Of a stretch of DNA of 64,000 nt, positions 34,920-59,187 are shown piece after piece; position 1 is the stretch's first letter; each line of letters starts with the position of its first letter. Where the stretch lies: positions 62,001 through 126,000 of the forward strand of contig CP002916.1 of assembly GCA_000350305.1 (NCBI GenBank). The letters are read 5' to 3'. Below the pieces are notes generated by a model. It saw only the letters and a program-made list of their open reading frames with translations. It was not told where the DNA came from and ran no database searches. The stretch comes from Thermoplasmatales archaeon BRNA1. Its GTDB lineage: Archaea; Thermoplasmatota; Thermoplasmata; Methanomassiliicoccales; Methanomethylophilaceae. The translations under genes were made by a program, and so were the position numbers.

Positions 34920-36190
34920 ATGATACGGCCATATTCTTCACGAATGAGTCGGTCTGACCGCATGTCGCTGGACAGCGTACGTAGTTCTCTCGCAAGGTGT
35001 TCTGAGACCTGGTACATTTACTATCCCGCAGTTGTACTGATAATCTCTCTATCAGTATTGTTGATTACCCTCGCGGTCAACAACGCTCAAACGGTCCTTG
35101 ACAGGATAACCTGGAACGCGGACGACTCTCTTATCCCTGACTTCACAGAAGTCGTTTGGAAAGCATACAATGGAAATCCCTATGATATGGGAAGTACCTA
35201 CCTTCCGATAACCTTCCTGATCTTCAAACAATTTTCGTATCTTATCCCCGACATATCTTCAATGGAGTCTTACTCCTTGACGCCCTCAGACCCGAACATC
35301 CCCTACTTCCTTGCGGAATTCGGAATCATGATGGGCCTGTGTATCGTTGTGACGATACTGATTCTGTACAAAGAAGTGAAAGAGCGCAGGATTCTCTCGA
35401 TTCTGATACTCCTCCTGCTTCTGGGCACCCCGATGATCTGGATGATTGAACGGGGAAATATCATTTTCTTAGGTTTCACGTTCCTCCTCTATTTCTACTT
35501 CAACTATGACAGCGATACCGAGTGGAAGAAGAAAACGGCAGTGTTCTGCCTGATTATGGCATGCTCGATTAAGCCCTATCTGTGGGGGTATTGATTATTC
35601 TTCTTCTCAAAGATAAGATGTACAAAGAGATAATCCAAGCAATCCTCGGTCTCCTCATAATCAATCTGATTGCATCGCTGTGGTTCGGAGGAGCTGAGGT
35701 AATCGGCCAGATAATCTCCAATATGACTAATCTGAACCTGACGTTCATGTTCATAGACGGATTCAAGATAGGTGCGGCCAACACGCTGGAAATCATCTTT
35801 TCCAACATGGGCGTCGAGATGAATCAGGTAGCAGATTTCATGAAGTATCTCATCTGCATTGGATTGCTGGTCTACAGCATCCTCTCAAGATACAGAAGCC
35901 TATGTGCATTATCCGCAATACTTTGCTACATAATGTTCTCCAATGTATCGTGGACTTATCTCCTCATTCTGCTCATTATTCCCATTGCCGCGATATATCT
36001 AGAGAATATTTCTGAAGAATTCGCAAAACCCGTGTTGATTCTTTTGATATTCTCCCTTGCGATACTGCCCGTCGGAGTTTACATAACTCCAAGTTACAAT
36101 ACCGTACCGATAACTTATTTCGTGAACTCATTAGTCTATTATCGATTTCAATCGATCAATAAGAAAACCAGCAGTATATCATCTCGATAA
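34920..36190 (+). pseudogene. GT87-like membrane glycosyltransferase, frameshifted in a G run
   Basis: Frame 1 runs 34920-35594 (start could also be the ATG at 34944 or 34962) and contains MIWMIERGNIIFLG with the RGN motif of GT87 and the CSIKPYL element. It stops at a TGA just after CTGTGGGGG (35581-35589). The next frame continues without a gap as GVLIILLLKDKMYKE to 36190 with more transmembrane helices. One additional G in the run would restore a single protein of about 420 residues, close to the GT87 gene at 9265. It may be a pseudogene, a sequencing slip or a slipping switch. Confidence 0.75.
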
Positions 36191-36660
36191 TGTCAACGTG
36201 TTCGAGGAACCTCTGAGTCTGGAGGATTTCGGGATATCCTGTCCGCCGCAATCGTTCGCATACATCGATGATGATAGTTGACTTGTTGCTAACTGTGTTC
36301 TCAAGTGTGTATCAAACAAGGGGGTGTAGCAGGCAATACGGCCAACTCACGTCACTGTGACGGGTTGGTGGTTTTTGTCAGTTGCATCAAAACAATAGGT
36401 TTTGAGAAGACGAATAACTGTTTTGAAGATGTGTTAATCATTTCGGAAAACTAACTGCAGTCTTCACGTTTTTAATATCCACAACTCAAACTGCATCTAT
36501 TGGGAGCTTATGCCCCCAAACGGTGCGGAATGAGAGTCTTGATCGAAGAGAAGAATACATTCGGGAAACAGATCCCAATCTGTTCTTAGCAGTTGTATTT
36601 CGGAATATTAACTATTAAATATGATACAAATTGTATCAAATTTCAGAGTTAAGTGAGAAT
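36191..36660. other. 470-base intergenic stretch with a coding remnant and hairpins
   Basis: No full gene. From about 36140 to 36283 one frame reads a protein-like tail (HLDNVNVFEEPLSLEDFG, ending IDDDS) without a start, perhaps the end of a deleted gene. A strong hairpin is at 36342-36367. A TATA-like TTTTTAATA at about 36469-36477 is followed by a second hairpin TTGGGAGC-TTAT-GCCCCCAA (36502-36521), so a small RNA is possible. An AT-rich TATTAAATA near 36612-36620 may promote the ATPase gene. Confidence 0.4.
36342..36367 (+). terminator. Imperfect hairpin followed by T run
   Basis: CCAAC...GTCAC pairs with GTGACGGGTTGG with a small bulge, then GGTGGTTTTTG. It looks like a terminator closing the surface-glycan region. 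Confidence 0.45.
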
Positions 36661-38040
36661 ATGACCGCAATCAGGAGAATCACACTCGACAATTACAAAT
36701 CGTTCGGCCATGTGGATTTCGACCTTACAGACGGGAAGGATCCCCTCCCTTACGCGTTCGTATACGGAGAGAACGGTTCCGGAAAGACCAATCTTCTTGA
36801 GACCATCTCCTATCTCAAGGATTCGGTGCTAACCCTTTCCCGCGGGAACGAGGTCGTGGACAGGGGGAGGGAATACGTGGAGGCTTTCGGCACCCTAATC
36901 GGATCCATGGGGCATGACTTCGACAGGGAGGAATTCGGGCAGTCGTTCATGGATATCCTCCTCCCCAAGGACATCACGCATCTCGCATCGCGGCACAGGA
37001 TGATTGGTTCCGCAGAGGACATGAGAATCTGCATTGTCTTCGACATCGACGGGCGTGACGCAACGTACGAGATGGTGTTTAACGGCGACAATAACCTCGT
37101 AAGCGAATCCCTGAAATGCGTTGCGAACGAGCGTACCTCAACACTCTACCAACTGACTGCGGATTCAGGCGCTATCGCAGCGAAGTTCAGCCGCACGTTC
37201 TTCGTCAGCTCCACCTACGAGAAGACCGTCCGTGAACTTATATCCAAACATTGGGGAAAGCACTCCTTCCTGTCCATCATGAACTATGAGACCGTCAGGA
37301 ACAATTCAGAATTCATGGAAAAGTCAGTTTCCGGCAGTTTCTTCAGATTCATGGCCGCACTGGAGGACATCAAGGTGGAGAACGGGCCCTACAGCGAGAT
37401 GATCTTCCGGGAACGCAGCGTTAGGTATAATCCCGAATCCGGAATAATCGAAAAGAGCCGGATGGGGGAACTAAAGCGTTACGAGAGCGCGTTGAACAAG
37501 GCGTTCACGAGGATATACTCCGACGTCCGCAGGGTGTATTTCGAACTCTCCGACCGCGGGGAGGACAGGGTGGAGTATTCGCTTATCTTCGTTAGGCACA
37601 TCCACGGGCAGGACAGGGAGATCTCTGCCGAGTTCGAATCCAGTGGAACCGAAAAACTGCTCGAAATCCTGCCCTTCCTCCTCGACTGTGCCAACGGAAA
37701 GGCAGTCCTCATCGACGAGATGGATTCCGGCATACACGACAAACTGGTGTTCGATCTCATACGTGAGGTCCTCGGGGAGATCAAGGGGCAACTCATCGTT
37801 ACGACTCACAACACCTCTCTGTTGAGGATACTGGATCCTGCAAACACGTTCATTATCAACGTGGACCTGAACGGCGAGAGGGAAATCCGTTGCGTGAAGA
37901 AGATTCTCCGTACACAGAAGAACAACAACAATCAGGACAGGTACCTGAAAGGCATGATGGACGGGGTTCCCTACATGGGTTCCCTGGACCTTGACGAGAT
38001 TGCATCATCTCTCGAGAACGATGTCAAGGGGACGGAATGA
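36661..38040 (+). CDS. AAA (AAA15/OLD-like) ATPase, putative anti-phage sensor
   Basis: 459 residues from the ATG at 36661; a TTG at 36631 is less likely. Residues 1-60 hold IRRITLDNYKSFGHVDFDL and Walker A GENGSGKTNLLE. The C-terminal half has the signature-like EFESSGTEKLLEIL, Walker B KAVLIDEMDSGIHD near 366 and LIVTTHNTSLL with the switch His. This is the SMC-like AAA15/AbiLi/AriA type found in abortive-infection systems. The stop overlaps the start of the TOPRIM-like partner (ATGA). In PARIS and AbiL the ATPase holds or senses and the partner acts; the same logic is inferred here. Confidence 0.85.
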   Translation: MTAIRRITLDNYKSFGHVDFDLTDGKDPLPYAFVYGENGSGKTNLLETISYLKDSVLTLSRGNEVVDRGREYVEAFGTLIGSMGHDFDREEFGQSFMDILLPKDITHLASRHRMIGSAEDMRICIVFDIDGRDATYEMVFNGDNNLVSESLKCVANERTSTLYQLTADSGAIAAKFSRTFFVSSTYEKTVRELISKHWGKHSFLSIMNYETVRNNSEFMEKSVSGSFFRFMAALEDIKVENGPYSEMIFRERSVRYNPESGIIEKSRMGELKRYESALNKAFTRIYSDVRRVYFELSDRGEDRVEYSLIFVRHIHGQDREISAEFESSGTEKLLEILPFLLDCANGKAVLIDEMDSGIHDKLVFDLIREVLGEIKGQLIVTTHNTSLLRILDPANTFIINVDLNGEREIRCVKKILRTQKNNNNQDRYLKGMMDGVPYMGSLDLDEIASSLENDVKGTE

Positions 38041-38627
38041 GCAGGACAGATATCGTCGTCATAGCTCACGGTAAATCGGAGATGATCCTTGCCAAATCCA
38101 TGAGGAGGGCTCTCAGGCTGCCGATAGAGGTGTTCAATCCGTTCAACGGGGAACACGACATCGCCATCGGAAATATCCTGGAAGTGATGGAGGAGTATGG
38201 TTTTCACGATGACCTCTCCCTCCACAAGATGTTCGACGGACTGCAGTATTCTCCGAAAGGCCGTCCGCCTATGAAGAATCTGGCGGTATTCCCCATACTC
38301 GACATCGATGCTTACCGCAAAGAGAAAAAGGCCTATTCCACCGGCAACATGTTCAGGGACAGCGCATTCGCGGACCGCATCCATCCGATCTTCAACGATA
38401 CCGACCTGGACACGGTCCTTCAGAGCCTGGGATACGACATCAGTACCGGAGGGGCGGTCAAGACCACATCGTATCACAACGTCTTCGATTCCATGACCGC
38501 GGAAGGGTATCTTCAACTGAGCGAACAGCTCAAAACCGTTCCCGAAAACAGCAACATGCACATCTTCATCGACTTCTGCCTGAGTCAGAGGCCGGAATAC
38601 CAGGGAAAGGTGGAATCTCCCTTCTAA
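38037..38627 (+). CDS. TOPRIM/RloB-like partner of the ATPase
   Basis: 196 residues. IVVIAHGKSEMILAKSM at the N-terminus resembles the first TOPRIM strand with Glu of the E-x-D type after a Gly loop, and AVFPILDIDAYRKEK (near 84-98) gives a DxD-like metal motif. The end reads IFIDFCLSQRPEYQGKVESP. RloB, DUF4276 and AriB-type nucleases have this pattern. Coupled to the ATPase by a 4-base overlap. The family call is motif-based and should be treated as likely rather than proven. Confidence 0.7.
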   Translation: MSRTDIVVIAHGKSEMILAKSMRRALRLPIEVFNPFNGEHDIAIGNILEVMEEYGFHDDLSLHKMFDGLQYSPKGRPPMKNLAVFPILDIDAYRKEKKAYSTGNMFRDSAFADRIHPIFNDTDLDTVLQSLGYDISTGGAVKTTSYHNVFDSMTAEGYLQLSEQLKTVPENSNMHIFIDFCLSQRPEYQGKVESPF

Positions 38628-38651
38628 TCTTATTATAATCAGTACCAACTC

Positions 38652-38662
38652 TTTTTATATAA
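38652..38662 (+). promoter_or_regulatory. TATA box of the L7Ae-S28e-L24e-NDK operon
   Basis: TTTTTATATAA lies about 79-89 bases before the L7Ae ATG. With a normal 25-base spacing, transcription would start near 38685, giving an unusually long leader of about 55 bases compared with other genes here. Confidence 0.6.
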
Positions 38663-38700
38663 TCACCAAATAGTCCCGTCTGCTCTTTTAGAGCCGATGA

Positions 38701-38730
38701 ATGATGAGGGCCCCTAACCGGGCCTGAAAG
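38701..38730 (+). promoter_or_regulatory. Candidate kink-turn (box C/D-like) in the L7Ae leader
   Basis: ATGATGA (box C consensus RUGAUGA, 38701-38707) is followed by GGCCC, a 6-base loop and GGGCC, then TGA so that CTGA (box D) is at 38724-38727. GA on each side of the 5-bp stem can form the tandem sheared G-A pairs of a kink-turn. It sits just before the ribosome-binding AGAGG (38730) of L7Ae, a kink-turn-binding protein. Binding would hide the start, an autoregulation known for L7Ae in other archaea. Confidence 0.6.
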
Positions 38731-38740
38731 AGGTATTGAT

Positions 38741-59110: not shown

Positions 59111-59187
59111 TGGCGGGCCTGAAGGGATTCGAACCCTTGGCCGTCCGATTAAGAGTCGGACGCTCTACCTAGCTGAGCTACAGGCCC
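59111..59187 (-). tRNA. tRNA-Lys (anticodon CTT)
   Basis: 77 bases on the minus strand. GGGCCTG acceptor arm pairs with CAGGCCC, discriminator G and encoded CCA (59111-59113). D arm AGCTCAGCTAGGTAGAGC, anticodon stem GTCCGA/TCGGAC with loop CTCTTAA, T arm AAGGGTTCGAATCCCTT. Its 3' end serves as the att core of the neighbouring elements; the gene is intact. Confidence 0.97.

What the first reader, a model, noticed from the sequence alone, without database searches (positions are those of the whole stretch)
36661..38627. Candidate two-gene anti-phage system in an archaeon
AAA15-type ATPase with Walker A/B and a coupled small protein with TOPRIM-like E and DxD motifs is the build of PARIS (AriA/AriB), AbiL and related systems. 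It stands between a scarred glycan locus and the ribosomal cluster. The partner is short and lacks a clear DUF4435 signature, so it may be a distinct subtype.
Basis: partly seen in the sequence, partly recalled or inferred. Interest (0 to 1): 0.62.

Follow-up and report, generated by a model that had tools for sequence, protein, structure and literature searches.

The report
Two-gene ATPase–nuclease defence module in archaeon
A gut-type methanogen carries a mobile pair of overlapping genes, a DNA-repair-like ATPase and a small nuclease-like protein, that belongs to a previously unnamed branch of the AbiL/PARIS kind of virus-defence systems and is shared mainly with gut Firmicutes and their phages.

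Summary
The pair is real. A 459-aa ABC ATPase (36661-38040) overlaps a 196-aa partner (38037-38627) by ATGA. The ATPase is AbiLi-like (PADLOC E=1e-42). The partner matches no Pfam, PADLOC or NCBIfam family, but its predicted fold is most like OLD/GajA TOPRIM domains (Z 7.2, suggestive). Sixty-seven of 83 ATPases in one supported clade have the same partner next door, and none has AbiLii. The two proteins co-diverge (r=0.89) and are under purifying selection. The module sits in phages, plasmids, gut Firmicutes, Brachyspira and 18 of 147 Methanomassiliicoccales genomes, in changing places, so it is not a housekeeping operon. The partner keeps the TOPRIM DxD and the GxxE glutamate, but the classical catalytic glutamate is apparently replaced by an almost invariant histidine (HGxxE, 71 of 72). 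It fails the PARIS test (no DUF4435; the same genome has a separate DUF4435 pair) and the AbiL test (no AbiLii). Best reading: a third two-gene ABC-ATPase/TOPRIM abortive-infection module, a new variant of a known kind. Antiviral activity is inferred, not shown. A 2023 study validated AAA:TOPRIM toxin-antitoxin pairs from Firmicutes; I could not check whether one belongs here.

The parts
36661..38040 (+). ABC/RecF-like ATPase, AbiLi-like (sensor and scaffold), 459 aa plus stop
   Evidence: PADLOC AbiLi 144 bits E=1.3e-42; AAA_21 and AAA_15 over cut-off; fold matches Rad50 (Z 20.9) and PtuA (Z 18.4)
38037..38627 (+). TOPRIM-like effector of the HGxxE family, 196 aa plus stop
   Evidence: AF2 pLDDT 87; best PDB matches OLD C-terminal TOPRIM Z 7.2 and GajA Z 6.5; conserved HGxxE and DxD
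38037..38040 (+). ATGA overlap of ATPase stop and partner start (probable translational coupling)
   Evidence: sequence; same 4-nt overlap in L003
36763..36789 (+). Walker A YGENGSGKT
   Evidence: sequence; Y35 G36 E37 N38 G39 G41 K42 invariant
37636..37662 (+). ABC-signature-like ESSGTEKLL
   Evidence: E326 S327 G329 T330 invariant
37702..37740 (+). Walker B, catalytic glutamate and D-loop AVLIDEMDSGIHD
   Evidence: D352 E353 D355 H359 D360 invariant
37801..37812 (+). H-loop TTHN
   Evidence: T381 T382 H383 invariant
38067..38081 (+). HGKSE: H11 at the place of the canonical TOPRIM glutamate, E15 at the place of OLD E404 / GajA E383
   Evidence: H 71/72, G 72/72, E 72/72; equivalence inferred from ranges
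38301..38309 (+). DxD motif D89-I-D91
   Evidence: D89 73/73, D91 72/73
38385..38411 (+). PIxNxxxL(D/E): acid D125, candidate second-metal ligand
   Evidence: P117 73/73, acidic residue at 125 in 73/73
38550..38555 (+). T/S-N motif (N173) near the C terminus
   Evidence: N173 in 70 of 71
36615..36622 (+). possible archaeal TATA box TTAAATAT upstream of the operon
   Evidence: inference from sequence only

Best explanation
The pair is a mobile two-gene abortive-infection module of the ABC-ATPase/TOPRIM kind. The AbiLi-like ATPase probably binds and silences the small TOPRIM-like protein, senses an invader, and on sensing releases or activates the partner, which cuts nucleic acid (host tRNA or other RNA most likely, DNA possible) with a metal-dependent active site and stops growth before the virus can spread. 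Shown here: the gene pair, its conservation as a unit, its mobility, intact ATPase motifs, and a TOPRIM-like predicted fold with conserved acidic residues. Inferred from AbiL, PARIS and OLD: complex formation, sensing, release, nuclease activity and abortive infection.
For: ATPase matches AbiLi (1e-42) and AriA (4e-22; PDB AriA E=2e-4). Partner: top five structural matches are OLD/GajA TOPRIM domains; scattered weak profile matches among relatives to AbiLii (3e-4), MAD4 (0.0015), GajA (0.0026), HEC-01B (0.02). 67 of 83 clade ATPases have the partner adjacent. ATPase and partner distances correlate at r=0.89, maximum of 2000 permutations 0.20; dN/dS 0.06-0.17 for both genes. Carried by E. faecalis conjugative plasmids and Oenococcus phage phi9805 and IMG/VR contigs, next to terminase genes (L012, L009), amidase/tail genes (L010, L038) or a Rep/ParA-like plasmid module (L013). 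Patchy in the order (18/147). Literature: F. nucleatum AbiLii is toxic in E. coli (PMC3985639); AAA-neutralised TOPRIM_OLD toxins were validated (PMC10440598); AriB cuts tRNA (PMC12409363).
Against: No assay. The TOPRIM assignment rests on Z 7.2 (below 8), Foldseek E 0.008 and weak profile matches; profile-profile comparison with archaeal AbiLii gave probability 9% (score 25.8 against 12.9 for the reversed control). The canonical TOPRIM glutamate seems to be histidine, so catalysis could differ or be lost. Fourteen clade ATPases stand without the partner. No trigger or target is known.
Confidence: 0.78

Rival explanations
1. A toxin-antitoxin or addiction module that keeps mobile elements in the host: the partner is a toxin neutralised by the ATPase, and virus defence is secondary or absent.
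For: Plasmid and phage carriage; AAA:TOPRIM_OLD pairs neutralise toxicity in E. coli (PMC10440598).
Against: Related AriA/AriB is not a toxin-antitoxin by deletion and gives defence (PMC9122126); F. nucleatum AbiLi did not neutralise AbiLii (PMC3985639). The boundary between the two kinds is blurred.
Confidence: 0.12
2. A cellular function such as DNA repair or cell-cycle control, as for the archaeal OLD protein Cran1.
For: Cran1, an archaeal OLD-family ATPase, is needed for cell-cycle progression and not for defence (PMC12796447); the ATPase fold is Rad50-like.
Against: Patchy: 18 of 147 genomes of the order and 4 of 14 of the genus hold it, at non-matching sites; found in phages and plasmids.
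Confidence: 0.05
3. The partner is not a nuclease but another Rossmann-like enzyme (for example a hydrolase) or an inactive TOPRIM that only binds nucleic acid.
For: Invariant HG in place of EG; SGNH hydrolases (TesA, OatA) come close in the fold search (Z 5.5-6.0).
Against: Motif order, DxD after a strand, the third acidic position, best matches all OLD-type, and ATPase context all fit TOPRIM; strong conservation of E15, D89 and D91 suggests metal binding.
Confidence: 0.15

Closest known systems
AbiL (AbiLi/AbiLii, RloA/RloB-like), Lactococcus
   Same: Two-gene order, AbiLi-like ATPase, small second gene of about 200 aa, motif order xG..xE, DxD, N...E
   Different: Partner has HGxxE instead of CEGxxTE, lacks the SNPxFExW motif of AbiLii, no AbiLii profile match in the window; ATPases form a separate clade with no AbiLii
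PARIS (AriA/AriB)
   Same: ABC ATPase with AAA_15/AAA_21 plus separate TOPRIM effector
   Different: No DUF4435; partner is 196 aa against 286 aa of the DUF4435 protein in this same genome, which has VEGVTD
OLD family / Gabija GajA
   Same: ABC ATPase with TOPRIM; predicted partner fold closest to OLD and GajA TOPRIM
   Different: Two separate genes, no GajB helicase, histidine at the E400/E379 place
NetFlax AAA(D29):TOPRIM_OLD pairs, including S. agalactiae 2603V/R (PMC10440598)
   Same: Bicistronic AAA ATPase and TOPRIM_OLD toxin from Firmicutes
   Different: Membership of that S. agalactiae toxin in this family could not be tested; it may be the same branch
MADS MAD3/MAD4
   Same: ATPase hits mad3 (4e-15); some partners weakly hit mad4
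   Different: Far below the NCBIfam MADS3 cut-off (42 against 420 bits) and no other MADS genes beside it

Membership tests
PARIS | ATPase with AAA_15 or AAA_21 over threshold | tested here: met
   AAA_21 77 bits (threshold 27), AAA_15 52 bits (threshold 32) (rule in PMC9122126)
PARIS | Adjacent or fused DUF4435 (PF14491) at 27 bits or more | tested here: not met
   No PF14491 match at E<=1 in the window partner and PF14491 is not among the families listed for its relatives (25 of 30 shown); the genome's only PF14491 match is elsewhere, at G000:C1:923070
AbiL | AbiLi ATPase | tested here: met
   PDLC02335 144 bits, residues 4-447
AbiL | AbiLii (RloB-like) second gene | tested here: not met
   No match at E<=1 in the window partner and none at E<=0.001 anywhere in the genome; only 2 of 42 relatives match weakly
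TOPRIM domain | TOPRIM fold | tested here: inconclusive
   Best matches OLD/GajA TOPRIM, Z 7.2-6.0, Foldseek best E 0.0078
TOPRIM domain | DxD motif | tested here: met
   D89 73/73, D91 72/73
TOPRIM domain | Canonical glutamate after strand 1 (OLD E400, GajA E379) | tested here: inconclusive
   Histidine at that place in 71 of 72; the equivalence rests on start positions of structural alignments (model 2 with OLD 391, model 4 with GajA 372) and not on a residue table. The second glutamate (E404/E383) is kept
OLD class 1/2 (Gabija) | ATPase and TOPRIM in one protein, with a helicase gene downstream for class 2 | tested here: not met
   Two separate ORFs; downstream genes are L7Ae and ribosomal/translation genes
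MADS | MAD3 over NCBIfam cut-off and the other MADS genes | tested here: not met
   42 bits against 420; neighbours are glycan and ribosomal genes
Anti-phage system | Protection against a virus in an assay | not testable with these tools
   no experiment possible

The most novel reading that the evidence does not exclude
The partner founds a distinct TOPRIM-type effector family in which the classical catalytic glutamate has been replaced by histidine (HGxxE...DxD...D/E), with an altered metal site and possibly a new target, working with its own AbiLi-like ATPase clade and exchanged between Firmicutes phages and gut methanogens.
Probability: 0.45. Interest if true: 0.62.

Novelty: new variant of a known kind. 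Interest (0 to 1): 0.5.

Why it matters
It would add a third two-gene ABC-ATPase/TOPRIM defence type beside PARIS and AbiL, one that detection by profile would miss because the effector matches no profile held here. It would give methanogens of the animal gut, whose antiviral systems are little tested, a defence shared with gut Firmicutes. The histidine at the place of the TOPRIM glutamate is a direct question about how this widespread nuclease domain can work.

Tried and rejected
PARIS membership: rejected, no DUF4435 while the same genome has a separate DUF4435 pair. AbiL membership: rejected on AbiLii. MADS and Gabija: rejected on cut-off and gene content. Housekeeping operon: rejected on patchiness. 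Sequence search of the partner profile against PDB: nothing. Pfam and PHROGs scans of relatives: only scattered chance matches. First collection scan with the window partner alone found nothing, and alignment A1 had no stretch conserved enough; the ATPase alignment solved this. AriA is not among the 50 listed fold matches of the ATPase model, which does not exclude it. Apparent ATPase-partner fusions (L006, L026) look like frameshifts, since in L006 the HGKSE segment lies in another frame. A profile-profile mapping of AbiLii onto the partner was too weak to use. More tblastn searches of phages and plasmids with other family members found only the same Oenococcus phage and Enterococcus plasmids.

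Full report
What is there. Two ORFs overlap by ATGA on the plus strand: an ATPase at 36661-38040 and a 196-aa partner at 38037-38627. The ATG at 36661 fits the start of the aligned relatives. Upstream lies a glycan region ending in a membrane-protein gene split over two frames; downstream, L7Ae and ribosomal/translation genes. The genome is one contig of 1.46 Mb, and its kin are Methanomassiliicoccales (nearest relatives; the order name is my reading of the record titles).

The ATPase. It exceeds the Pfam cut-offs of AAA_21 and AAA_15 and matches PADLOC AbiLi best, 144 bits over residues 4-447, then AriA at 78 bits. Walker A, signature, Walker B with catalytic glutamate and H-loop are intact and nearly invariant in relatives, so ATP hydrolysis is plausible. 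The AF2 model (pLDDT 81) matches Rad50 (Z 20.9) and Septu/retron PtuA (Z 18.4), as expected for this superfamily.

The partner. No family in Pfam (above chance), PADLOC or NCBIfam matches it. Its AF2 model is confident (pLDDT 87). The best structural matches are the TOPRIM domains of OLD proteins (6nk8 Z 7.2, rmsd 4.3 over 142 residues) and GajA (8j4t Z 6.5), ahead of SGNH hydrolases at 6.0 and less; a small TOPRIM protein and retron Eco2 also appear. Z is under 8 and Foldseek's best E is 0.008, so this alone is suggestive. Weak sequence matches of relatives point the same way: AbiLii 3e-4, MAD4 0.0015, PDC-M04B 0.003, GajA 0.0026, HEC-01B 0.02; AbiLii and GajA are TOPRIM proteins (PMC10440598), and the others are second components of ATPase systems as far as I know. 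I put TOPRIM at about 0.85.

The active site. Over 72 full-length relatives the invariant positions are H11 (71/72), G12, E15, D89 (73/73), D91 (72/73), P117, an acid at 125 (E 43, D 30) and N173. In OLD the metal ligands are E400, E404, D455, D457, T506 and E508 (PMC6755086), and in GajA E379, E383, D432, D434, D511, D513 (PMC10822852). The structural alignments begin at model 2 with OLD 391 and model 4 with GajA 372; without gaps in strand 1 this puts H11 on E400/E379 and E15 on E404/E383. So the classical glutamate appears replaced by histidine while the second glutamate, DxD and third acid remain. The residue pairing is inferred, not read from a table. Archaeal AbiLii has CEGxxTE at the same place, and the DUF4435 protein of this same genome has VEGVTD.

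A unit, not a coincidence. Among ATPases found by scans of viral contigs, one public genome collection and archaeal genomes, one clade (SH support 98) holds 83 rows: 67 with the HGxxE partner next door, 2 with a frameshifted partner, 14 without it, and none with AbiLii; 28 other ATPases go with AbiLii and fall in another group. The tree is FastTree and its deep joins are weak. Partner and ATPase distances correlate at 0.89 over 59 pairs against at most 0.20 in 2000 permutations, and dN/dS is 0.06-0.17 for both genes. Closely related pairs make the permutation test generous, but the correlation is large.

A mobile unit. It occurs on E. faecalis conjugative plasmids and in Oenococcus phage phi9805, where the partner has a premature stop. 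In viral contig L012 it sits before the terminase genes, as it does in phi9805; in L010 and L038 it follows a phage-type amidase; L013 carries Rep_3 and ParA-like genes. Hosts are mostly gut Firmicutes, with Brachyspira, Mucispirillum and Methanomassiliicoccales. The archaeal rows form one group (98) within the bacterial diversity, which suggests an old transfer; its direction was not tested.

Place in the archaeal genome. Eighteen of 147 genomes of the order have the partner family, 4 of 14 in the genus. In G075, same genus, the pair lies at 660 kb while L7Ae is at 1,876 kb. None of nine same-genus genomes with enough sequence has the pair upstream of L7Ae; there one finds glycan genes, a DDE transposase (G107), an AAA_14/DUF4143 protein (G325), and in G319 an AbiLii gene with a truncated ATPase. 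The region thus takes up variable genes.

How it probably works. By analogy with AriA/AriB, where AriA senses a viral trigger and releases AriB, which cuts tRNA (PMC12409363), and with AbiL, whose second protein can be toxic (PMC3985639), the ATPase should hold the partner and release it on infection. A tRNA target is my best single guess (about 0.35); RNA in general 0.55. None of this is shown for this branch.

Novelty. By the published rules it is neither PARIS nor AbiL, and no profile held here names the partner. I found no paper that describes it, but only open-access papers were searched, and the S. agalactiae AAA:TOPRIM_OLD pair of PMC10440598 may belong here. I therefore file it as a new variant of a known kind.

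Noticed in passing
G000:C1 about 921.9-923.9 kb (L174:303-1418 and 1429-2289), outside the window: The same genome has a separate PARIS-like pair: a 371-aa ATPase followed by a 286-aa DUF4435 protein with VEGVTD.
   Followed up: partly
Methanomassiliicoccales, 147 genomes: ATPase/TOPRIM-type defence genes are very common in this order: AbiLii in 54 and DUF4435 in 61 of 147 genomes.
   Followed up: no
upstream of L7Ae (window 36000-38740; L163-L171): The stretch before the L7Ae gene is variable within the genus and holds an AbiLii gene with a truncated ATPase, a transposase or an AAA_14 protein in other genomes: a possible hotspot for acquired genes.
   Followed up: partly
L004/L140 near 1660 and L150 near 1641: Two archaeal partner genes have an in-frame TAG in the same region of the protein; these archaea are known for pyrrolysine, so it could be readthrough or decay.
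   Followed up: partly
L058, L071, L077, L086, L088 and L039, L075, L082, L084: Two small sub-clades of the ATPase stand without any partner gene.
   Followed up: partly
L023, L024, L025: Archaeal contigs with two ATPases of this clade close together, some without a recognisable partner.
   Followed up: no
window 34920-36190: A glycan-type membrane-protein gene is split over two frames directly upstream of the pair.
   Followed up: no
window 59111-59187: The only tRNA gene in the window is tRNA-Lys(CTT); probably unrelated.
   Followed up: no
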